Shown in pieces: positions 4,206 to 41,066 of a stretch of 64,000 nt of DNA. This DNA comes from Candidatus Cloacimonadota bacterium (GTDB lineage: Bacteria; Cloacimonadota; Cloacimonadia; Cloacimonadales; TCS61). Under the pieces are notes generated by a model. That model saw only the letters and a list, made by a program, of their open reading frames with translations, had not been told where the DNA came from and did no database searches. Numbering within the stretch: position 1 is the stretch's first letter; each line of letters starts with the position of its first letter. A program made the translations under genes and the position numbers. The stretch covers positions 124,001 to 188,000 of the forward strand of contig JASUTE010000002.1 in NCBI GenBank assembly GCA_030445745.1, given 5' to 3'.

Positions 4206-4536
4206 CAGACAGTCAAGCTCAAAAGGTCTGTAAATTACTTGTAAAGAATTTAAGCACTTTTCAGTTCTAGCTTATTTTTTCTTTTTCTCTTATTACTCTT
4301 TCCCTTCTTCTGATCTTTTCATTTAAACGCTCAATGCTATTGGTTATTCGCAATCTTTTGCGATACTTTAAGGGAAGAACAAGAACTGCTAAAATATCAT
4401 CAAAACCTTGCCATAATTTACTATCTAAATTAGTTTGTACCTGAGCCATTATTCTCTCCTCCTTGTTTTGATTTTTGCTTAAACCAAGTATGAGGATTGA
4501 ATTTTGGCTCAACTAATTTTACACCATTTTCTGGAC
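4206..4536 (-). mobile_element. Decayed IS256-family (Mutator-type) element
   Basis: Inferred limits of an insertion-sequence relic. It contains a short transposase tail (4267-4449). Its right edge (4517-4536) reads TTTTACACCATTTTCTGGAC, which resembles IS256-family terminal repeats. Its left edge (4210-4234) carries a loosely matching inverted copy, with GTC, AAAAGG and CTGTAAA in the corresponding order. Most of the transposase, including the DDE domain, is missing, so the element cannot move by itself. It sits between the envelope run and the restriction-modification island, which makes it a plausible scar of island entry. The repeat ends are less certain than the coding remnant. Confidence 0.4.
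4267..4449 (-). pseudogene. IS256-family transposase, C-terminal remnant
   Basis: About 60 codons remain. The peptide contains LPLKYRKRLRITNSIERLNE followed by KIRRRERVI, which is the signature near the C-terminus of Mutator/IS256 transposases (typically RRRLRTTNxxERLNxEIRRR). The catalytic DDE region is absent and the final residues after RERVI depart from the family, so this is a truncated, inactive gene. The frame can be extended upstream to 4512, but those residues show no family resemblance and may be the former 5' end of the element joined by deletion. Confidence 0.75.
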
Positions 4537-4600: not shown

Positions 4601-5602
4601 TTATTTCTTTTGTAAGATGTGTAAATATTCGATAGTTTTATTTGATTTGTGTTTTCTGTTTTCTTCTTTATCAGCTCTAAATCTTTGATAATCTATATTT
4701 GCTAAGCTGTATTTACCATATTTACTCATAATGTTTTCAACTTCATCAACAGTCATTAATCCTTCATTATTATAACTTAAGAATATATATTTAAAATTTG
4801 CATTTTCTATTAACTCATTAAAAGCATTTATTACAGAATGTTTACTACAATATTGTGATTTTTTATAATTTCTTAATCCAGTTTTACCTTTTGGCTCAAA
4901 ATAATCATATAATGCAATTGTATTTAATAGATGGTAATTTGCTCCATACTGTCTAGTATTATAAGGTGGGTCAAGATATAAAATATCTCCTTCAATTTGT
5001 TTTATTAGTTTGTTACTATCTTCATTAAACACTATATGGTCATTTACATTAATTGTAAAATCAGCTGATTCTATGATTAATTCTTTTTGAGCTGTTCTTT
5101 TTAAATTTTTCAAAAATGCACCATAAACTGATGCAGTATTTGCTACTTTATCAGCGCTTTCTATAAGGCTCGCCAATAAAAAATAATACAATTCATTAGA
5201 TATTTCCTTGCTATCTTTCAATTTTTCAATTTCTTGTCTAATAGCATCAATTTTTTTCCCATTATTATCTGAGAAATATTGACGTCCACTACCACTTCCA
5301 ATGCAATAATTATTATAAATAAAACCCACAGTTGGTTGAATGTTATTAAGTTTTTCTATATACTTTTCTTTATTTGGTATTGGATTATGATTACCAATAT
5401 AATTTTTATTCAAAACATAACTATAATATTCGAAGTCATTTGCGATTACCATTTTCACAGAACTTTTAAACTTTCTTCCAATAATACCAGTTCCAGCAAA
5501 AAGATCACAGAAAATCTTATTTGATAAATTATTGCCAACAACTGATTGAATTGTTGTAAAAATAAAATCTGACAATTTATATTTTGAACCTATATAATTC
5601 AT
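4601..5602 (-). CDS. D12-class DNA N6-adenine methyltransferase
   Basis: 333 residues. Transfers a methyl group from SAM to adenine N6 in a specific DNA site. Seen: the family start MNYIGSKYKLSDFI, SAM-binding motif I FAGTG (residues 35-39), and catalytic motif IV DPPY (Asp211 to Tyr214) followed by NTRQYG, in the alpha (Dam/D12) order with the target-recognition region between them. Length is normal and the motifs are intact, so it is probably active. It is the last gene of the AT-rich four-gene cassette and begins 2 bp after the PD-(D/E)XK nuclease stop. Inferred role: protecting host DNA against one of the neighbouring nucleases. The recognition site cannot be read from the sequence. Confidence 0.88.
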   Translation of the reverse strand: MNYIGSKYKLSDFIFTTIQSVVGNNLSNKIFCDLFAGTGIIGRKFKSSVKMVIANDFEYYSYVLNKNYIGNHNPIPNKEKYIEKLNNIQPTVGFIYNNYCIGSGSGRQYFSDNNGKKIDAIRQEIEKLKDSKEISNELYYFLLASLIESADKVANTASVYGAFLKNLKRTAQKELIIESADFTINVNDHIVFNEDSNKLIKQIEGDILYLDPPYNTRQYGANYHLLNTIALYDYFEPKGKTGLRNYKKSQYCSKHSVINAFNELIENANFKYIFLSYNNEGLMTVDEVENIMSKYGKYSLANIDYQRFRADKEENRKHKSNKTIEYLHILQKK

Positions 5603-5604
5603 AA

Positions 5605-6744
5605 TTAATAAACCACATCATTAAATGATAATATTCTATTTTGTTCACAATCAATTGAAAATTCGATATAACGCAACTTTAAAATATTATTAGTAAAATT
5701 AAAATTATTAAAAGCATTTAACAAATTCTGATAATTCTGTGATGTCTTATCAGTGATTTCTCTTGCTATTATCATTGGTTCTATATCTGAAGGTCTATTT
5801 GGTACATAATATTGCTCAATCCAGTCAACATATCTTTGTAATTGATTTATAATGGCTGGATATGCTATACCAGATTTTAATTCAACCGGAACTACTTTTC
5901 TATTATCTCCATCAACCGAAATCATTATATCTATCCTTTGCATGCCAACACCACAAGATACTTCATTACCAATCCATTCAATTTGTTGATTTAAAAATAT
6001 AGGTAATTGTTCTAAATGTTGTAAGATGTATGCTTGTAAATGAGCTTCAAATTGCTTATTATCACAATATTTATTTATCAATCTTGGGAGTATATTTATT
6101 TGTTCGACTCTACCAGAATAGTGATATGATTGTTGTGTTACTTCTATTTTTTGTGTTATTTTGTTAAAAGTAAAGTTGCTTCCATCCAAATATATTCTGT
6201 TGTTTTTATTTCTAATCAGACTTATTAATCTTTCGCTTTCATAAATTGTAATCATTGTATTTCCACGATTACCTTTAAGTTTTCGATAAATTAAACTCCA
6301 TAACATTTGATTGGGAGATTGAATATTTTTGATTTCATCTAGCGCTTCCCATTCTGTTATACCTTCTGCATATATTTGATATGGCTTTATTATAGTTCTA
6401 AAAGTTAAAGATTTTCCTAATTGGCTATTTAAAAATTGTTGATTATCATTGTTGTCTAGAAAAGAAGGTTCTTCTTTTACTTTAAAAACCCCATAAAACA
6501 TTCCTTCTTTTATTCCTTGAGATTTATTTTGTTGTAGATAAAAAATTACATAATCATCTATTCTTATTCGTTGACTATCGGCAATCATACCAAGCAGGTT
6601 GTTTTCAGTTTTAGGATGCAGCCTACTTGTAAAAGAATTGTTAAAATCAATAATTCTATCTTTTGCTCCTGTTCCAGCAAACATATATTCCAAATGATAT
6701 TTGAAAGTTGTCAAATCTACTATAAAAACATGGGTTGTTGCCAT
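5605..6744 (-). CDS. PD-(D/E)XK nuclease with NucS/DUF91-like domain, putative restriction enzyme
   Basis: 379 residues. The C-terminal half resembles the nuclease domain of NucS/DUF91 proteins: an entry helix FEAHLQAYILQHL with Glu233, then RIDIM (Asp272), VPVELKSG (Glu288, Lys290) and a helix NQLQRYVDWI, a complete PD-(D/E)XK layout. The N-terminal ~200 residues (starting MATTHVFIVDLTTFKYHLEY) match no family I recognise and may read the DNA site, perhaps as an EVE/PUA-like module. Placed 3 bp after the HNH gene and 2 bp before the D12 methyltransferase, it is probably the restriction subunit paired with that enzyme. A type IV-like enzyme or repair nuclease is the alternative. Confidence 0.7.
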   Translation of the reverse strand: MATTHVFIVDLTTFKYHLEYMFAGTGAKDRIIDFNNSFTSRLHPKTENNLLGMIADSQRIRIDDYVIFYLQQNKSQGIKEGMFYGVFKVKEEPSFLDNNDNQQFLNSQLGKSLTFRTIIKPYQIYAEGITEWEALDEIKNIQSPNQMLWSLIYRKLKGNRGNTMITIYESERLISLIRNKNNRIYLDGSNFTFNKITQKIEVTQQSYHYSGRVEQINILPRLINKYCDNKQFEAHLQAYILQHLEQLPIFLNQQIEWIGNEVSCGVGMQRIDIMISVDGDNRKVVPVELKSGIAYPAIINQLQRYVDWIEQYYVPNRPSDIEPMIIAREITDKTSQNYQNLLNAFNNFNFTNNILKLRYIEFSIDCEQNRILSFNDVVY

Positions 6745-6747
6745 ACT

Positions 6748-7431
6748 TTACTCCAACTCTGGATACAATTTTTTAAATACAGCATCAGCGGCTTCTTTGG
6801 CAGCCATTTTACTAACTTTTATAACCACTGTCTTTCTATATTTAACAGGGTCATATTGGTAACATCCTTTACATCCTAATTCTTCAGTATAATTTTCATC
6901 GCCCTCATAAAATTCAAAAGGATTACCCTTAAGATTTTTTGCATTCCATCTTTTATTTGTTTCTTTACATATTTTGCAAATTTGTCTTTTAGCATCATTA
7001 GCGGCTTTACATAATGGTTGAAAATCATCAAAACTTTGTGAGGTCAAATTAGAAATTCTATTATTGCCTTTTCTGCCATCTTTATGGTCGATCTCAATCT
7101 TTGTGTTTTCTGATTTTCCATTTATACCAAGCATTACACAATTTTGTTTTTTATAATAATCTTTTATATCTTTTCTAATATTATGATTGAAATTTTCTTT
7201 TTTATTAAATCCATTTAGTCGTATAGCATCAATAGAATTTCCTTTAGTTATACTTTTATCAAACTCTAGAAGGTATTCTTTTGCTAGGGGCGAACTTTTT
7301 CTACACCAGCTACCCCCATTGCCCAGCTTTAAATCAAAATATTTATTTTGAAATTCAGTTACTTTAACCCAACGGCTGAATCCATTTTGATCTGGTTTAG
7401 CTAAATCCAAAAATAAGTCTTTTTTTGACAT
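6748..7431 (-). CDS. HNH restriction endonuclease (putative)
   Basis: 227 residues from the ATG at 7431, chosen because AAAGGAT lies just upstream and because it clears the preceding stop at 7436; a longer frame to 7488 would overlap that gene. Core motif: IEIDHKDG (Asp115, His116), then NNRISNL (Asn124), PLCKAANDAKR (Asn145) and CKIC. A second pair of cysteines follows in GCKGCYQYD. This beta-beta-alpha-metal nuclease layout with CxxC zinc pairs is known from several type II restriction enzymes. It lies 4 bp after the methyltransferase stop and 3 bp before the PD-(D/E)XK gene. Function as a restriction enzyme is inferred from context; a homing or phage HNH enzyme is less likely given the methyltransferases. 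Confidence 0.75.
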   Translation of the reverse strand: MSKKDLFLDLAKPDQNGFSRWVKVTEFQNKYFDLKLGNGGSWCRKSSPLAKEYLLEFDKSITKGNSIDAIRLNGFNKKENFNHNIRKDIKDYYKKQNCVMLGINGKSENTKIEIDHKDGRKGNNRISNLTSQSFDDFQPLCKAANDAKRQICKICKETNKRWNAKNLKGNPFEFYEGDENYTEELGCKGCYQYDPVKYRKTVVIKVSKMAAKEAADAVFKKLYPELE

Positions 7432-7435
7432 ATAT

Positions 7436-8230
7436 TTATCCTTTCTTAAAAACAAAAATATATTCGTGCTTAAATAAATAATAATCACTTTTCAATGCTC
7501 TATATCGCCAAATACCACCTTTACCAAGCTTACCTCTGTTGCCTTCAATATTTTTGATTATTATGCCCTTTAATTTTACTTCAAAATTTTCCTTAATCGA
7601 ATTAAATAAATAAAAAGATAGAGGGATTACCTCTCTATTTTTGTAAATATCACCTATAACTAGAGCAAAATAGCGCCCATCTTCTAAATAGGGCAAGCAA
7701 TTTTTGCAAACTTGTATAAATTTTTTTTTAAATAAACTGATATCTTTAATATTGGATAAATCATTTTTATTATTAGTAAATTTAATTATGTCAAGATATG
7801 GTGGATGCATCAAGATAAAATGAAAATTATATGTTTTAAATTTATCAAAAGCAGCTTTAATTTCTTTCTTGACTTTAATATTTTTAGTAACATCACATAG
7901 GCTGTAATAATAGTCTTTGTAAAAAATATCGTTATTCATTTTTGTATTTACATAATTTATCATTTCAGGATTAATATCAAAACCAATATATTTTCTATGT
8001 AAATTTTCACATTCAAATAATGTAGTACCGCTTCCCATAAATGGTTCAAACACAATTTCATTTTTTTTGGTAAATCTTCTTATTAACTGGTTTGGAATTT
8101 GTGGGATAAAATTACCATGATAGATATTTGTGTGTTTACCTGATTTATCACGTTCATTGATCAACCAAAGGCTATCAACATTTATGTCTATTTCCTTCCA
8201 TTTTTCTAAATCTAGGTCATTATACTTCAT
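7436..8230 (-). CDS. Site-specific DNA amino-methyltransferase (N4-cytosine or N6-adenine)
   Basis: 264 residues. SAM-binding motif I is EPFMGSGTT (residues 62-70), followed by YIGFDINPEMI (motif II) and motif IV HPPY (142-145) in LMHPPYLDIIKF. Motif I comes before motif IV with a C-terminal target region, unlike the D12 enzyme in the same cassette. The first motif IV residue is His, where N6A enzymes usually have Asp or Asn and N4C enzymes Ser, so the modified base is not settled. First gene of the cassette; the HNH nuclease starts 4 bp after its stop. Inferred role: modifies one strand or one half of the site cut by the neighbouring nucleases. Confidence 0.82.
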   Translation of the reverse strand: MKYNDLDLEKWKEIDINVDSLWLINERDKSGKHTNIYHGNFIPQIPNQLIRRFTKKNEIVFEPFMGSGTTLFECENLHRKYIGFDINPEMINYVNTKMNNDIFYKDYYYSLCDVTKNIKVKKEIKAAFDKFKTYNFHFILMHPPYLDIIKFTNNKNDLSNIKDISLFKKKFIQVCKNCLPYLEDGRYFALVIGDIYKNREVIPLSFYLFNSIKENFEVKLKGIIIKNIEGNRGKLGKGGIWRYRALKSDYYLFKHEYIFVFKKG

Positions 8231-33587: not shown

Positions 33588-34616
33588 ATGAGTAATAAGC
33601 GAGGATTTGCCAGCGATAATAATTCCGGAGTACATCCGCGGCTGTTGCAGGCATTGCAACAAGTTAATGTTGGCCACACCATTGCTTACGGCGATGATGA
33701 CTATACCCACGCGGCGCAAAATTTATTAAAACAACATTTTGGAGAAACAGCACAGAGCTTTTTCGTGTACAACGGCACTGCGGCTAATGTGCTTTCCCTA
33801 AAAGCTATGACCAATTCCTTCAATTCAATCATCTGTGCCGAAACAGCGCATATAAACGTGGATGAATGCGGGGCACCCGAAAAATTTACTGGCAGCAAAC
33901 TGCTTAGTGTGGAAACTCCCGATGGCAAATTAACCCCACAGCTTATAAAAAAACATCTGCATGGGTTTGGATTTGAACACCATTCCCAACCTAAAGTGAT
34001 CTCGATAACTCAATCTACCGAAATGGGCACGGTTTATACTCCTGCCGAAATAAAGGAGTTGACCGATTTTGCTCACAAACAGGGATTGTTGGTGCACATG
34101 GATGGTGCTCGCCTTTCCAATGCTGCTGCTTATTTGAATCTAAGTTTCCAGCAGATAACCGCTGATGTAGGTATAGACGCTGTTTCCTTTGGCTGTACTA
34201 AAAATGGTGGTATGTTCGGCGAAGCTATCATCTTCTTCCGACCAGAGCTGGCAGCAAATTTTAAATATTATAGGAAACAGGGTATGCAGTTGGCTTCCAA
34301 GATGCGCTTTATATCTGCCCAGTACACTGAATTGCTAAAAGATGGTCTTTGGCATCAGTTAGCTAGCCATTCCAACCAGATGGCGCAAAAATTGGCAAAA
34401 GAAGTTGCCCAAATTCCTCAAATAAAAATAACTCAGAAGGTGGAAGCGAACGGTGTTTTTGCCATTATCCCACCCCGGATAATTCCGCAGTTGCAGGCAG
34501 AATATTTCTTTTATATGTGGGATGAACACAACAATGAAGTGCGCTGGATGACCTCTTTCGATACCCAGCCCGAAGATATCGACAACTTTGTGGCCAAAAT
34601 AAAGGAGTTGCTATGA
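33588..34616 (+). CDS. Threonine aldolase (low-specificity type)
   Basis: 342 residues from the ATG at 33588: AGGAG at 33577-33581 is 6 bp upstream, while an alternative ATG at 33582 touches it. PLP-dependent aldolase family splitting L-(allo-)threonine to glycine and acetaldehyde. Seen: [27 protein letters not shown], the NGTAAN cofactor-binding turn, [11 protein letters not shown] and the Schiff-base Lys205 in [14 protein letters not shown]. Stereospecificity cannot be read by eye, and a related beta-elimination activity is possible. First gene of a run; overlaps the macrodomain gene by 4 bp. Confidence 0.88.
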
Positions 34617-35125
34617 GAAACAGGATAAAAGTTTATTTAGGTGACATTACCAAGTTGGAAGTGGACGCCATTGTGAACGCTGCCAATCGCAGCTTGCTGG
34701 GTGGTGGTGGTGTGGATGGCGCTATTCACCGCGCTGCCGGCAAACAGCTTTTGGCCGAATGCAAAACTTTGGGTGGTTGCCAAACAGGTGAAGCTAAGCT
34801 AACCAAGGGGTATAATTTGCCGGCTAAATTTGTTATTCACACAGTTGGCCCAGTTTGGCGAGGTGGAAACAACCGAGAAACAGAGCTTTTGGCAAATTGC
34901 TATCGGAATAGTTTGCAACTGGCTGTGCAAAACGAAGTTAAAACAATTGCTTTCCCAGCAATAAGTACCGGTGTGTACGGTTTCCCTAAGCAAAAAGCAG
35001 CCCAAATTGCCCTACGCGAAGTTGCCAATTTCCTAAAAAACAACAAACAGCTCAAGCAGGTAATTTTTGTATGTTTTGATAACGAAAATTACCAGATCTA
35101 TCAACAGGGATTAGATGAAATATAG
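34613..35125 (+). CDS. ymdB: Macrodomain O-acetyl-ADP-ribose deacetylase (YmdB-like)
   Basis: 170 residues, a stand-alone macrodomain of the MacroD/YmdB type. Seen: [20 protein letters not shown] followed by [14 protein letters not shown], the signature ADP-ribose loop, and [12 protein letters not shown], the second loop. These enzymes remove acetyl from O-acetyl-ADP-ribose or ADP-ribose from acidic residues; YmdB also modulates RNase III in E. coli. Key residues ([14 protein letters not shown]) are intact. Overlaps the threonine aldolase by 4 bp and the HAD gene by 11 bp. Confidence 0.93.
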
Positions 35126-35789
35126 ATGCATTTTACTCGACCATGACGATACTTCTGTAAACAGTACTGCTACTATTCATTATCCTGCTTACTGCGAAAT
35201 TATGAATACCCTTCGGAGTGATGAACCAGAACTAAAGCAGGATCTGGAAGGCTGGTTCCTAAAAAATTTCGATCCCGGCGTGGGAGATTACTACCAAAAA
35301 GAACTGCAATTCAGTTTGGAAGAACAGAAGCAGGAATATGCAATGTGGCGTAGCTATACCGAAAACAAAGAGTTGTTACCCGAGTTTTATGAAGGTGTTT
35401 TGGAAATTATTCGCGAATTTCAGCAAAAGGGAGGTATAGTAGCCGTTTGTTCCCATTCGGAAGCCGATATCATTGAAAATCATTATCGTAAAAAGGGGAA
35501 TGGCATTTTCCCAGACCTCATTTTTGGTTGGAACGATGATCATAGCAAGATGAAACCAGAGGTTTATCCGGTAGAAGTAGTGCAGCAAAGATATAACCTG
35601 AACCCAGAGCAAATTTTGGTGGTAGATGACCTGAAACCGGGCTACATGATGGCTAGGCTGGCTGGAGTGGATTTTGCCGCTGCCGGCTGGGCGCACAACA
35701 TCGAACCTATTGCTAAGTTCATGCGCCAGCATGCCGATTATTATCTGGAAACAGTGGCTGAACTTAGAGAAATTATTTGGGAAAATTAG
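35115..35789 (+). CDS. HAD-superfamily hydrolase
   Basis: 224 residues. Motif [13 protein letters not shown] carries the Asp-x-Asp nucleophile pair (DHDDT); a helical cap follows; motif II is VCSHSEAD; motif III Lys lies in [10 protein letters not shown]; motif IV is VVDDLKPG. This is a complete phosphatase-type active site of the phosphoglycolate phosphatase/beta-phosphoglucomutase group. The substrate is not predictable. Overlaps the macrodomain gene by 11 bp and lies 2 bp before the methyltransferase. Confidence 0.85.
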
Positions 35790-35791
35790 CA

Positions 35792-36448
35792 ATGGGAAAG
35801 ATAAAATTCGTTACTACCAGAGATGGCTCGCAAACAGCCTACAACCAGCAGGCAGATGAACATTACCATTCAGTAACAGGTGCAATAGAAGAAGCTTTTG
35901 AAAAATATGTAAAACCACTGCAAATAACCGACGGAATGTGTATTTTGGACTACTGTTTTGGTTTGGGTTACAACAGCATTGCTGCTACTGCGCAGCATTC
36001 CAACCTGCAAATTACAGCTTTGGAAAAGGATATCCAGATAGTGCGTGCTATGAAAAAAGTGGCTCCCCCTGCGCCTATTTCCCATAAATATGAAATTTTT
36101 AGCGACCTAGCTGAGCAAAATATTATTAAAGATAACGATAATAATGTTATCAAGCTAATTTTGGGCGATGTTTTCCAAACTTTACCTACCTTGCCCGATG
36201 AATTTTTCGATAGAGTTTTTTTTGACCCGTTTTCTCCTACTAAACAACCGGAGATGTGGAACTTGCAAATATTTAACTTGGTGTATGCTAAACTGAAAGC
36301 TGGCGGTAAATTAGCCACCTACAGTTGTGCCAAAATGGTGCGTAACAATATGCGCTATGCGGGTTTTAGAGTGTACGATGGCCCCCAGGTTGGCCGCAAA
36401 AGTCCAGCTACCATAGCTGTAAAAGTAAAAAAGACTTGCCTAAAATAA
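35792..36448 (+). CDS. MnmC-like (methyltransferase domain) SAM methyltransferase
   Basis: 218 residues from the ATG at 35792; the frame opens 15 bp earlier with a TTG inside the HAD gene, but ATG is preferred. Seen: QADEHYHSVTGAIEEAFEKY, motif I ILDYCFGLGYNSIAA, and FFDPFSPTKQPEMWN with LATYSCAKMVRNNMRYAGF, closely matching the methyltransferase half of MnmC (which completes mnm5s2U34 in tRNA wobble positions: typically DGFAPAKNPEMW and TFTSAGFVRRGL). The FAD-oxidase half of bifunctional MnmC is missing, as in many bacteria and archaea. tRNA modification is therefore likely, but other substrates are possible. Confidence 0.75.
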   Translation: MGKIKFVTTRDGSQTAYNQQADEHYHSVTGAIEEAFEKYVKPLQITDGMCILDYCFGLGYNSIAATAQHSNLQITALEKDIQIVRAMKKVAPPAPISHKYEIFSDLAEQNIIKDNDNNVIKLILGDVFQTLPTLPDEFFDRVFFDPFSPTKQPEMWNLQIFNLVYAKLKAGGKLATYSCAKMVRNNMRYAGFRVYDGPQVGRKSPATIAVKVKKTCLK

Positions 36449-36494
36449 TTTTATTCTAAAATTGTGTTAAGAATAACCTATATAAGGAATTTTT

Positions 36495-37532
36495 ATGCTG
36501 GAACGAATTTCTACTCCCGATGAATTACCTGGTGAAAAGGATTTTGATAGAACCCTAAGGCCAAAATCTCTGGATGAATTTGTAGGACAAGAGAAGATCA
36601 AGGAGATTTTGGAGATAGCTATACAAGCCACCAAACTTAGGAAGGAGCCGCTGGACCATGTGCTGTTCTATGGCCCGCCTGGTTTGGGGAAAACCACTTT
36701 GGCCTATATCATTGCCAATGAATTGGGGGCCGATGTGAAGGTAAGCGCCGGCCCTGTTTTGGAAAAAGCTTCCGATTTGGCTGGAATTCTTACTAACCTG
36801 CAGCGCAACGATGTGTTTTTTATCGATGAAATCCACCGCTTGAACCATGTGGTAGAAGAATATATGTATCCGGCTATCGAAGATTTCGAGATGGAGATAA
36901 TAATCGACAGCGGACCTAGTGCGCGTTCTTTGAATATCGATATCGAGCCCTTTACCCTGATAGGAGCAACTACCAGAGCAGGTTTGCTAACCTCGCCCCT
37001 GCGGGCACGTTTTGGCTTAGTGCTGCGGCTGAACTACTACGACAGCGCCAGCATCGAGAAGATTATTAAGCGCTCTGCTAAACTGCTAAAGGTGTCTATC
37101 GAACAAGAAGGCGCTACCGAAATAGCCCGCCGTAGCCGCGGTACACCAAGGGTGGCCAACCGCCTTTTGCGCCGAGTGCGCGACTATGCCCAAATAAAAG
37201 GCGATGGCGTGATAACCAAAGATATAGCCATGAAAGCTCTGAAGATGCTGAATGTAGACAATGCAGGGCTGGACGAGATGGACAAAAAGATAATAACTAC
37301 TATAATAGAAAACTACCAGGGTGGGCCGGTAGGACTGAAAACCATGGCTGTAGCTGTGGGCGAAGATGCCGGCACTATTGAAGAGATCTACGAACCTTAT
37401 CTGATACAGCAGGGTTTTTTGGATAGAACTCCCCAGGGACGTAAGGCTACTTGGAAAGCTTACAAACATTTTGGGCGCACTCCACAAGAAGAGCAAATTT
37501 CTATATTTGAGGAGTCTGATGATAAAAGCTAA
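36495..37532 (+). CDS. ruvB: Holliday junction branch-migration helicase RuvB
   Basis: 345 residues. AAA+ motor that drives branch migration with RuvA. Seen: the start [17 protein letters not shown], Walker [30 protein letters not shown], Walker [11 protein letters not shown], sensor [19 protein letters not shown], and the winged-helix C-terminus ([20 protein letters not shown]). RuvA and RuvC are not adjacent. Preceded by a 46 bp gap with AAGGAA before the ATG. Noticeably higher GC than the flanking genes. Confidence 0.97.
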
Positions 37533-38079
37533 GTTAATTATCCTAGCACTTTTTTTCTGCACTATGTTACATTCTCTCGATTTTCGAGATTACAACTGGG
37601 GTGATTCTAAGGAAGAAGTTTTAAAGACAGAACAAAGAGAACCGCTATTAAACCAGAAAGAATTTTTGGTATATGAGGGGGTGGTAGCTAAGTTTCCAGC
37701 TACAATTATCTATACTTTTTTGGAAGATGAATTGGTGCGCGGCATGTATGTGTTGCAAACCGAGTACGAAAAAAATAACGACTATATTATGGATTTTTTC
37801 TATTTGCAAAAATTATTGACCCAGCTATATGGCAAGCCCATGGAGGAACTGGATATCACCAAATCGATGGTAGAGAAGGATAGGCGAGGGCGCTACGGCA
37901 AAGAGATAGCCCAGGGCGAACGTATTTTGCAAAACAAATGGAAGTTGGAACGCACCTTGATTATTTTGACCTTAGATGGTAAAGAAAATAAACTAAGTAC
38001 CAGGGTAAATTATTCTTCCTTTTTCCTGCTGGAACACCTGCAGAAAAAACAGAGAGAAGATTTGCTGCGCGGATTATAA
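37519..38079 (+). CDS. Exported protein of unknown function
   Basis: 186 residues from the ATG at 37519, chosen for GAGGAG 5 bp upstream; it overlaps the end of ruvB by 14 bp. Signal peptide [20 protein letters not shown], then [20 protein letters not shown], a strand-helix start (aromatic, WG, S/D-xxEV) found in many small periplasmic proteins of unknown role, and a charged C-terminal helix. No catalytic motif. Coupled translation with ruvB is likely, although a functional link is not evident. Confidence 0.7.
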
Positions 38080-38190
38080 TTTCCAATTTCCTACTAATTA
38101 TTGAAATTTGTAGTAATTTGATATTCCTAAAAAACGGCAATAAAGCCTATTCCAATTGAAAATAAATAATTAAAAATAAGAGGTAAAAAA

Positions 38191-39012
38191 ATGTTTTATG
38201 GAGAGATGTTAAACGAATTGATGAGCAGAAAAAATACTAATCCAGTAAACCAGATGTATCTACAAGAGATAATGATAAAGTGGAAAAATTTTGCCAAGTT
38301 GGCCGAAAGAGAAGATAAGCCAGCCAATGAGGAACTTACCAGCGCTTTGGAAGAGTTCATTGCGGCAGTTTCTAATAAGAAATATAATTATAACCCACAA
38401 ACAAAAAATGGTTTTACTAAAAATTCACCTATTTTTTCTGCACTCTATTTAGCCGACCTTATTACTATCTTTATTCAACGGACTGGTTTCTTGCAAAACA
38501 GAGGTGTGGATTGGGGATTTCAGCAGTTTAGTAAAAATATCCATTTTGCTCCCACCACCCTGAACGAAATGCACAAAGAACCTGGGTTCACGTGTGAAAA
38601 TTCCGATTCTGTATTGCAACTAGCACAAAAACTCGATTTTAGAGTTAGACCAAGCGGAAGACGCAATATGAATAAGTATCAGCTGGTATTCCCGTTGGTT
38701 ACCTTCCATCTTTTCCGTAACCTCACCAGCGAGGATTTGGAAATAAGCAAACAATATGCTAAAGAAGCTAAGGCTACTTTCGAGCGTTCTAAATCCTTAG
38801 TTGTTTGCGAGACTGTGGACGAGAACTTTATTCCCGAGATAAAAGACTGCGACATCGATATGATATTCGTGCTGCGCAAACAGTTCAAACGTAAGAAGAT
38901 TAACAAGATCGACCCGGGGGTGCTCTACAAAATGGAAAGTATTTTAAGAAGTTATTTATTTGAAGAGAATTCCCTGGTTGAACAATTCCAAAATAAAGGA
39001 TATATCGACTAA
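38191..39012 (+). CDS. Hypothetical protein upstream of urocanate hydratase
   Basis: 273 residues, start preceded by AAGAGG. No signal peptide, membrane helix or family motif recognised. Mostly helical; the first 60 residues look amphipathic (LNELMSRKNTNPVNQMYLQE), and the C-terminal part has basic clusters (RKQFKRKKINKID). It lies 20 bp before hutU, so the two are probably co-transcribed. A role in histidine use is possible but unsupported; it does not resemble HutG, HutI, HutH or formiminotransferase. Confidence 0.65.
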   Translation: MFYGEMLNELMSRKNTNPVNQMYLQEIMIKWKNFAKLAEREDKPANEELTSALEEFIAAVSNKKYNYNPQTKNGFTKNSPIFSALYLADLITIFIQRTGFLQNRGVDWGFQQFSKNIHFAPTTLNEMHKEPGFTCENSDSVLQLAQKLDFRVRPSGRRNMNKYQLVFPLVTFHLFRNLTSEDLEISKQYAKEAKATFERSKSLVVCETVDENFIPEIKDCDIDMIFVLRKQFKRKKINKIDPGVLYKMESILRSYLFEENSLVEQFQNKGYID

Positions 39013-39032
39013 AAAATATAAAAGGAGACGTT

Positions 39033-41066
39033 ATGAAAAACTTTGATATTTCTAATGCAATGACCATTAAATTGGATAGCAATTTGCCCGAGTATCCCGA
39101 ATTTGAAAAGGGAATTCGGCGAGCACCACGCCGCGAGATGGATTTGAACCAGCAGGAGATAGAGCTGGCCCTGAAAAATGCCCTGCGCTATATTCCCACC
39201 GAGCTGCACGAAAAACTGGCTCCCGAGTTTTTGGATGAGCTAATGACCCACGGACATATTTATGGCTATCGCTACCGGCCCCAAGGCCATATCTATGGCA
39301 AACCGGTAGACCAGTACAAGGGCAAATGTTTGGAAGGAAAAGCGTTCCAGGTGATGATAGATAACAACCTGGATTTCGAAATAGCGCTTTATCCCTATGA
39401 ATTGGTAACTTATGGCGAAACAGGTTCTGTGTGCCAAAACTGGATGCAGTACAGGTTGATAAAGAAATACTTGGAAAATCTGACCCACGAAAACACTCTG
39501 GTTTGCATGAGCGGACATCCTTTGGGCTTGTTCAAATCTTCGCCACAGGCACCACGAGTAATAAACACCAACGGACTTATGATAGGGCAGTTCGACAACC
39601 AACACGACTTTAACCGCGCCAATGCTTTGGGCGTGGCAAACTATGGCCAAATGACGGCTGGGGGCTGGATGTACATAGGCCCTCAGGGAATAGTGCATGG
39701 AACTTATAACACCATTCTTATTGCCGGCCGCCAAAAGCTGGGTGTGCCCGAAGATGGTGACTTGCATGGTAAACTTTTTGTATCTTCTGGTTTAGGCGGC
39801 ATGAGCGGAGCTCAGCCCAAAGCAGTTGAAATTGCCCGCGGAGTAGGTGTTTTTGCCGAAGTAGATAGCTCACGTATAGAAACCCGTCACAAACAGGGCT
39901 GGGTTAGCAAGATTACAGATTCTGCCGCTGAAGCTTTTAAAATTGCTCAGGAATACATAAAAAAGGAAGAAGCGATGTCTATTGCCTACCACGGCAATAT
40001 CGTGGATCTGCTGGAATATGCCGCCGATAACCAGGTGCATATCGATTTACTTTCCGACCAAACTTCCTGCCATGCTGCCTATGAAGGTGGCTATTGCCCG
40101 CAGGGGCTTAGCTTCCAAGAGCGTACCCAAATGCTGGCGGAAGATAGAGAGAAATTTATAAAACTGGTAAATCAATCTTTGCGCAAGCATTTTAAAGTTA
40201 TTAAGAAACTGGTAGCTGCTGGTACTTATTTCTTCGACTACGGCAACAGCTTTTTGAAAGCAGTTTTTGATGCTGGAGTGAAAGAAGTTGCTAAAAATGG
40301 CAAAAATACCTACGACGGCTTCATCTTCCCCAGCTATGTGGAAGATATCCTGGGGCCGGAATTGTTTGACTACGGTTATGGTCCCTTCCGCTGGGTCTGC
40401 CTTTCTGGCAAAGAGGAAGACCTGATAAAAACCGATATGACAGCAGCGGGAATTATAAAAAATTGCCGTCCCCAATTGCGCTACCAAGATCGCGACAACT
40501 ATATTTGGGTAAAAGATGCCATGAAAAACAAACTGGTAGTGGGAACGCAGGCGCGCATTTTGTACCAAGATGCACCTGGGCGCTTGGCAATAGCGTTAAA
40601 ATTCAACCAGATGGTGAAAGCTGGCGAGATTGGGCCAGTGATGCTGGGACGTGACCACCACGATACCGGCGGCACCGACAGTCCCTATCGCGAAACTTCT
40701 AACATAAAAGATGGTTCCAACATTATGGCTGAAATGAGCACCGAATGCTACGCCGGTAATGCTGCTCGCGGCATGAGCATGGTTACTCTACACAATGGTG
40801 GCGGAGTGGGAATTGGTAAAGTTTCCAACAGCGGCTTTGGCATGGTGCTGGATGGCAGCAAGCGCGTGGACGAGATATTGCAGCGGGCTTTCCCCTGGGA
40901 TGTGATGTGTGGTGTGGCTCGCCGAGCCTGGGCGCGGAATCCGCATTCTATAGAAACTGCCATTGAACATAACCAGAAGTTCAAAAATACCGACCACATT
41001 ACCCTGCCCTACCAGGCAGATGAAAATTACCTTAAAAACCTGGTAGCAGCTAAACTGAAAAAATAG
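39033..41066 (+). CDS. hutU: Urocanate hydratase
   Basis: 677 residues, the long form (many are ~555). Second step of histidine degradation: urocanate to imidazolone propionate, using a tightly bound NAD as electrophile. Seen: GGWMYIGPQGIVHGTYNTIL followed by IAGRQKLG, SSGLGGMSGAQPKAVEIARG (NAD-binding), DQTSCHAAYEGGYCPQGLSF and GRDHHDTGGTDSPYRETSNI followed by KDGSNIMA. Good AAAGGAGACG upstream. HutH, HutI and HutG are not in the window, so the pathway is split. Confidence 0.95.
   Translation: MKNFDISNAMTIKLDSNLPEYPEFEKGIRRAPRREMDLNQQEIELALKNALRYIPTELHEKLAPEFLDELMTHGHIYGYRYRPQGHIYGKPVDQYKGKCLEGKAFQVMIDNNLDFEIALYPYELVTYGETGSVCQNWMQYRLIKKYLENLTHENTLVCMSGHPLGLFKSSPQAPRVINTNGLMIGQFDNQHDFNRANALGVANYGQMTAGGWMYIGPQGIVHGTYNTILIAGRQKLGVPEDGDLHGKLFVSSGLGGMSGAQPKAVEIARGVGVFAEVDSSRIETRHKQGWVSKITDSAAEAFKIAQEYIKKEEAMSIAYHGNIVDLLEYAADNQVHIDLLSDQTSCHAAYEGGYCPQGLSFQERTQMLAEDREKFIKLVNQSLRKHFKVIKKLVAAGTYFFDYGNSFLKAVFDAGVKEVAKNGKNTYDGFIFPSYVEDILGPELFDYGYGPFRWVCLSGKEEDLIKTDMTAAGIIKNCRPQLRYQDRDNYIWVKDAMKNKLVVGTQARILYQDAPGRLAIALKFNQMVKAGEIGPVMLGRDHHDTGGTDSPYRETSNIKDGSNIMAEMSTECYAGNAARGMSMVTLHNGGGVGIGKVSNSGFGMVLDGSKRVDEILQRAFPWDVMCGVARRAWARNPHSIETAIEHNQKFKNTDHITLPYQADENYLKNLVAAKLKK

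What the first reader, a model, noticed from the sequence alone, without database searches (positions are those of the whole stretch)
4601..8230. AT-rich four-gene cassette with two different methyltransferases and two different nucleases
Seen: four same-strand genes with only 2-4 bp between them, in the order methyltransferase (HPPY motif), HNH nuclease, PD-(D/E)XK nuclease with a NucS/DUF91-like fold, D12 methyltransferase. Known: ordinary type II systems carry one nuclease, and two methyltransferases occur with asymmetric-site (type IIS) enzymes. A single operon with two unrelated nuclease folds is uncommon. Inference: either two back-to-back systems merged into one transcript, or one composite system where the second nuclease is a subunit or a trap for modified DNA. 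The cassette is visibly more AT-rich than its flanks, so it was probably acquired.
Basis: partly seen in the sequence, partly recalled or inferred. Interest (0 to 1): 0.72.

Follow-up and report, generated by a model that had tools for sequence, protein, structure and literature searches.

The report
Modular restriction–modification island with two nucleases
Four tightly packed genes form a mobile DNA-defence island in which a known CATG-cutting system (NlaIII/iceA type) shares an operon with a little-studied nuclease that carries a modified-base-reading domain, and relatives in some 15 or more phyla mix and match the same four genes.

Summary
In detail: four minus-strand genes at 4601-8230 with 4, 3 and 2 bp between them, GC 26.6% against 38.1% for the rest of the window. 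The HNH gene is an ICEA (R.NlaIII/iceA1-type) nuclease. The D12 gene is an hpyIM-type (CATG) methyltransferase. The other nuclease is an EVE/YTH-like modified-base-reader domain fused to a NucS/EndoMS-like PD-(D/E)XK domain (AlphaFold pLDDT 91). Eighty related loci in about 15 or more phyla show that the genes form a modular set: the first methyltransferase plus EVE-NucS is the common pair, D12 is often added, and ICEA slots in at different positions. The same four-gene order recurs in other phyla. ICEA-D12, EVE-NucS-D12 and MT1-ICEA-D12 also occur, with no copy of the missing partner found in the searched assemblies. I read this as two exchangeable restriction units sharing protective methyltransferases, not one obligate composite enzyme. 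EVE-NucS is probably a resident restriction nuclease, because close relatives are essentially never found without a methyltransferase. Whether it also targets CATG is open: its partner pattern says yes, but EVE-NucS cassettes without ICEA do not avoid CATG. New variant of a known kind, moderately interesting.

The parts
7436..8230 (-). MT1: amino-methyltransferase, N6_N4_Mtase family, motif I FMGSGTT, motif IV HPPY; 264 aa; first gene of the operon
   Evidence: Pfam 5.3e-23 and PADLOC MTase_II PDLC03351 2.4e-83; HPPY kept in 75 of 76 relatives, the other reading HPSY
6748..7431 (-). ICEA/NlaIII-type HNH restriction endonuclease, 227 aa (ATG at 7431)
   Evidence: PF05315 ICEA 5.9e-115 over the whole model; core Asp-His, Arg, Asn residues conserved in 34 of 34 homologues
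5605..6744 (-). EVE-NucS: EVE/YTH-like N-terminal domain plus NucS/EndoMS-like PD-(D/E)XK nuclease, 379 aa
   Evidence: AF2 model pLDDT 91, pTM 0.89; VIA Z 13.1 (rmsd 2.3, 136 aligned) to EVE protein PH1033, Z 10.2 to EVE-HNH VcaM4I, Z 9.9 (rmsd 2.4, 108 aligned) to NucS 2vld; D272, E288, K290 invariant in 75 of 75
6205..6744 (-). EVE/YTH-like domain of EVE-NucS (residues 1-180)
   Evidence: R116 and W149 invariant, F22 and F95 in 74 of 75
5629..6051 (-). NucS/EndoMS-like PD-(D/E)XK domain of EVE-NucS (residues 232-372)
4601..5602 (-). D12-class adenine methyltransferase of the hpyIM (CATG) type, DPPY, 333 aa; last gene of the operon
   Evidence: PF02086 2e-50; about 63% identical to the D12 of Helicobacter cysE-iceA-D12 loci
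4267..4512 (-). IS256 transposase remnant (C-terminal piece) just downstream of the cassette
   Evidence: NCBIfam transpos_IS256 2.6e-9, PF00872 1.2e-6

Best explanation
It is a horizontally moving Type II-like restriction-modification island made of exchangeable modules. Module A is MT1 plus the EVE-NucS nuclease. Module B is an NlaIII/iceA-type pair: ICEA cuts unmodified CATG and the D12 enzyme methylates the adenine of CATG. The modules are interleaved in one operon. Proposed working: MT1 and D12 methylate the host chromosome; ICEA cleaves foreign DNA with unmodified CATG; EVE-NucS cleaves DNA lacking the protective methylation, using its base-flipping EVE domain to inspect a base and its NucS-like domain to cut. 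D12 alone is apparently enough to keep either nuclease tolerable, and MT1 alone is enough for EVE-NucS. Shown here: gene content, order, predicted folds, intact active-site residues, recurrence and module exchange. Inferred from orthology and literature: CATG specificity of ICEA and D12. Inferred and untested: that EVE-NucS is a restriction nuclease blocked by the partner methylation, and its target site.
For: ICEA scores 382 bits to PF05315, and D12 is about 63% identical to D12 of Helicobacter loci with cysE-iceA-D12 synteny. hpyIM methylates CATG and iceA1 is a CATG endonuclease gene (PMC4450513, and the title of Xu 2002 cited in PMC13340068). In 80 loci of EVE-NucS relatives, nearly every locus not cut by a contig end has MT1 and/or D12 adjacent and usually overlapping, the signature of an R-M pair. 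Genomes with EVE-NucS + D12 lack MT1 (G124, G130, G128, G389, G390); genomes with MT1-ICEA-D12 lack EVE-NucS; most MT1-EVE-NucS genomes lack a close D12. ICEA with known flanks always has D12 (13 of 13), against 26 of 49 cassettes without ICEA (Fisher p 0.001, not corrected for phylogeny). ICEA needs at least 5 changes on well-supported branches of the EVE-NucS tree, 9 in all, and sits before or after EVE-NucS or after MT1. The ICEA of G090 is 74% identical to the window's although its EVE-NucS is only about 61%. ICEA-bearing cassettes avoid CATG (O/E 0.44 against flank 0.62; ICEA-free 0.66 against 0.60; p 0.03). In Campylobacter volucris both nucleases are frameshifted while MT1 and D12 are open, as expected if the nucleases are the toxic parts.
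Against: No biochemistry or methylome is available for EVE-NucS or MT1. EVE domains in known nucleases read modified bases (VcaM4I; PMC7897488), and Bell et al. 2020 class EVE-PD(D/E)XK proteins as putative modification-dependent Type IV enzymes (PMC7641849). A distant homologue stands alone without a methyltransferase on a Halobaculum plasmid. EVE-NucS cassettes without ICEA show no CATG avoidance and no other word stands out. 'No MT1' or 'no D12' rests on draft assemblies and E-value cut-offs; four of 19 MT1-EVE-NucS genomes hold a diverged D12-class enzyme elsewhere. The host's own CATG level is not clearly lower than in relatives without the cassette.
Confidence: 0.6

Rival explanations
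1. EVE-NucS is a modification-dependent (Type IV-like) nuclease bundled with an R-M system: the R-M arm restricts unmodified DNA, and EVE-NucS traps phage DNA that escapes by carrying foreign base modifications. The partner methylations are simply not recognised by its EVE pocket.
For: EVE/YTH-like fold with structural similarity to the 5mC/5hmC-reading EVE-HNH VcaM4I and to YTH m6A readers; conserved aromatic residues F22, F95 and W149 compatible with a base pocket; Bell et al. predict Type IV function for EVE-PD(D/E)XK fusions; a distant homologue is solitary; no CATG avoidance in EVE-NucS-only cassettes.
Against: Such an enzyme needs no methyltransferase, yet close relatives are essentially never found without MT1 or D12, in overlapping order, across some 15 or more phyla.
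Confidence: 0.25
2. EVE-NucS is a repair nuclease (Vsr-like or mismatch-directed, as NucS/EndoMS is) that tidies lesions or mismatches at the sites its partner methyltransferases modify.
For: The catalytic domain is closest to the archaeal mismatch endonuclease NucS/EndoMS (Z 9.9), and Vsr nucleases are known partners of methyltransferases (own knowledge).
Against: Vsr accompanies m5C enzymes, where deamination makes T:G mismatches; here the partners are amino-methyltransferases. The N-terminal domain of NucS is replaced by EVE. In C. volucris the nuclease is broken along with ICEA, not retained.
Confidence: 0.07
3. One obligate composite restriction enzyme in which ICEA and EVE-NucS are subunits acting on one site.
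For: The same four-gene order recurs in unrelated hosts, e.g. L012/L043, L013, L067, L071, L072, L077.
Against: Each nuclease is widespread without the other, and ICEA changes position.
Confidence: 0.04

Closest known systems
NlaIII / iceA1-hpyIM restriction-modification system (CATG)
   Same: ICEA nuclease followed by a D12 adenine methyltransferase in the same order; full-length ICEA match, D12 about 63% identical to Helicobacter iceA-locus D12
   Different: Here two further genes (MT1 upstream, EVE-NucS between ICEA and D12) are part of the operon
iceA1/hpyIM cluster with an additional methylase in Campylobacter jejuni ST-677 strains (PMC4658567, PMC4687069)
   Same: Reported iceA1 and hpyIM homologues with an extra DNA methylase in one cluster, thought to be acquired horizontally; locus tags 14950c, 14940c and 14910c leave room for genes between
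   Different: The passages read name no EVE-NucS nuclease; whether the unmentioned genes are EVE-NucS was not checked
EVE-containing modification-dependent endonucleases (VcaM4I EVE-HNH; EVE-PD(D/E)XK class of Bell et al. 2020)
   Same: N-terminal EVE domain fused to a C-terminal nuclease
   Different: Nuclease domain is NucS/EndoMS-like, and close relatives are tied to one or two dedicated methyltransferases
NucS/EndoMS mismatch endonuclease
   Same: PD-(D/E)XK catalytic domain with matching fold (Z 9.9)
   Different: N-terminal domain is EVE/YTH-like instead; different gene context
LlaJI and BsuMI multi-gene Type II systems (own knowledge, not looked up)
   Same: Two methyltransferases and more than one nuclease gene in one locus
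   Different: Those use m5C methyltransferases and subunits that act together; here the nucleases occur separately

Membership tests
NlaIII/iceA-hpyIM R-M system (ICEA + D12 part) | ICEA-family HNH nuclease with conserved core residues | tested here: met
   PF05315 382.7 bits, positions 1-218 of 218; core residues conserved
NlaIII/iceA-hpyIM R-M system (ICEA + D12 part) | Cognate D12 adenine methyltransferase downstream, orthologous to hpyIM | tested here: met
   About 63% identity to D12 of Helicobacter loci with cysE-iceA-D12 synteny; no named hpyIM sequence was compared directly
NlaIII/iceA-hpyIM R-M system (ICEA + D12 part) | Recognition of CATG | tested here: inconclusive
   ICEA-bearing cassettes avoid CATG (0.44 against 0.66 without ICEA, p 0.03); host genome level not decisive; no methylome
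EVE-type modification-dependent endonuclease (Type IV) | EVE-domain fold fused to a nuclease domain | tested here: met
   Z 13.1 to PH1033, Z 10.2 to VcaM4I over residues 2-179; NucS Z 9.9 over 232-372
EVE-type modification-dependent endonuclease (Type IV) | Works without a cognate methyltransferase | tested here: inconclusive
   Close relatives are essentially always beside MT1 and/or D12; a distant homologue is solitary
EVE-type modification-dependent endonuclease (Type IV) | Cleaves only modified DNA | not testable with these tools
   needs biochemistry
Type II R-M system with EVE-NucS as restriction enzyme | Nuclease active-site residues intact and gene linked to a methyltransferase | tested here: met
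   D272, E288, K290 in 75 of 75; linkage
Type II R-M system with EVE-NucS as restriction enzyme | Cleavage of unmodified target, blocked by partner methylation | not testable with these tools
   needs biochemistry or phage assays
NucS/EndoMS mismatch endonuclease | NucS catalytic domain | tested here: met
   sequence match below Pfam cut-off (19.1 against 24 bits)
NucS/EndoMS mismatch endonuclease | NucS N-terminal domain | tested here: not met
   N-terminus models as EVE/YTH-like; NucS and EndoMS chains align only to residues 227-372

The most novel reading that the evidence does not exclude
EVE-NucS is the nuclease of a widespread, undescribed R-M family in which a modified-base-reader domain is turned round: it inspects a flipped base and lets the nuclease cut only when the partner's methyl mark is missing, at the same CATG site that ICEA cuts, so two unrelated nucleases guard one methylation mark.
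Probability: 0.25. Interest if true: 0.75.

Novelty: new variant of a known kind. Interest (0 to 1): 0.52.

Why it matters
The cassette belongs to a broadly spread family of methyltransferase-linked EVE-NucS nucleases that PADLOC, NCBIfam and Pfam do not recognise with a curated model of its own. If EVE-NucS is a methylation-blocked nuclease, EVE domains are not only readers of modified DNA. The mix-and-match loci give natural tests of which methyltransferase protects against which nuclease, and the H. pylori iceA-hpyIM pair becomes one configuration of a larger modular set.

Tried and rejected
CATG avoidance in host genomes: inconclusive, relatives without the cassette range from 0.61 to 1.07. 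Search for a word avoided by EVE-NucS-only cassettes: nothing stands out from the flanks. Phylogenetically independent pairs for ICEA with D12: too few to test. Empty-site test through LptE: RluB and YchF neighbours are conserved, but DUF58 is not the other neighbour in relatives, so no empty site was shown. Terminal repeats around the cassette: only short imperfect repeats, none flanking it. Phage collections: no ICEA or EVE-NucS match in annotated phages; two EVE-NucS and one ICEA contig in IMG/VR. PADLOC gave no restriction-enzyme hit for EVE-NucS, but it gave none for ICEA either, so this is not evidence.

Full report
What is there. The four genes lie on the minus strand at 4601-8230, in transcription order MT1, ICEA-type HNH, EVE-NucS, D12, with 4, 3 and 2 bp between them. 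GC is 26.6% against 38.1% elsewhere. The host lies in the same family as G090, whose cassette contig has the number and length of a Candidatus Cloacimonadota contig, so the host is most likely Cloacimonadota. An IS256 remnant follows the cassette.

Identity of the parts. The HNH protein matches the whole ICEA model (PF05315, 382.7 bits), the family of R.NlaIII and iceA1. The D12 protein is about 63% identical to D12 of Helicobacter loci where cysE, iceA and D12 stand in a row (cysE recognised by eye). In H. pylori hpyIM methylates CATG and lies beside iceA1, described as akin to the NlaIII system (PMC13340068, PMC4450513). MT1 is an amino-methyltransferase with motif IV HPPY, kept in 75 of 76 relatives. 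EVE-NucS was modelled from 71 sequences at pLDDT 91. Residues 2-178 match EVE proteins (Z 13.1) and the EVE-HNH endonuclease VcaM4I (Z 10.2); residues 232-372 match NucS and EndoMS (Z 9.9). D272, E288 and K290 are invariant.

Relatives. A scan of 84,980 species genomes with EVE-NucS gave 80 loci, the cap, from about 15 or more phyla. Common arrangements in loci not cut by a contig end: MT1-EVE-NucS-D12 (14), long MT1-EVE-NucS (12), MT1-EVE-NucS (9), MT1-ICEA-EVE-NucS-D12 (5, window included), EVE-NucS-D12 (3), EVE-NucS-MT1-ICEA-D12 (2) and rarer ones. Neighbouring genes outside the cassette seldom recur. Other nucleases take the second slot: a diverged HNH (L021, L053, L055, L070), another HNH (L076) and a small PD-(D/E)XK-like protein (L069, L011); the last two assignments are by eye, and Pfam has no confident match.

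Separability. In Helicobacteraceae 32 of 121 genomes have ICEA sequence, mostly ICEA-D12 without MT1 or EVE-NucS, many with broken ICEA and intact D12. Whole-genome searches found no MT1 in EVE-NucS + D12 genomes and no EVE-NucS in MT1-ICEA-D12 genomes. Most MT1-EVE-NucS genomes have no close D12. ICEA always came with D12 where both flanks could be read (13 of 13), against 26 of 49 ICEA-free cassettes (not corrected for phylogeny). The ICEA label needs 9 changes on the EVE-NucS tree, at least 5 on well-supported branches.

Interpretation. These facts fit exchangeable nucleases drawing on a shared set of methyltransferases. EVE-NucS is most likely a restriction nuclease, since close relatives keep a methyltransferase partner. 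If D12 is CATG-specific and alone protects EVE-NucS hosts, EVE-NucS should act at CATG-containing sites. Against that, ICEA-bearing cassettes avoid CATG (0.44, flank 0.62) but ICEA-free ones do not (0.66, flank 0.60). So the same-site idea stays open, at roughly 40%.

Literature. EVE-PD(D/E)XK fusions are known as putative Type IV enzymes (PMC7641849), and VcaM4I shows how an EVE domain flips a modified base (PMC7897488). In the passages read and the searches made, no paper described EVE-NucS as the partner of methyltransferases; only openly licensed papers were searchable.

Noticed in passing
window 4267-4512 (-): C-terminal remnant of an IS256-family transposase directly downstream of the cassette.
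   Followed up: partly
L085 4859-7145 (Campylobacter volucris): Both nuclease genes of the cassette are split into two frames while MT1 and D12 stay open; an A8 tract lies at 6531 in the EVE-NucS gene.
   Followed up: partly
L069 7160-7936; L011 2526-3113: A small PD-(D/E)XK-like protein with a shared FDLK-T/V-TY stretch sits in the cassette, in L069 right after a 61-aa ICEA remnant; no confident Pfam family.
   Followed up: partly
L008 3541-4677 and other long MT1 genes: MT1 of two-gene cassettes often carries an extra N-terminal segment of about 110 residues with no family match; nearly all such loci lack D12.
   Followed up: no
L186 1692-2732 (Sulfurospirillum diekertiae plasmid): A D12 relative (63% identity) without any cassette nuclease, between a polymerase-like ORF and IS21 genes.
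   Followed up: partly
window 34001-41000: A stretch of higher GC (up to 48.5%) than the rest of the window.
   Followed up: no
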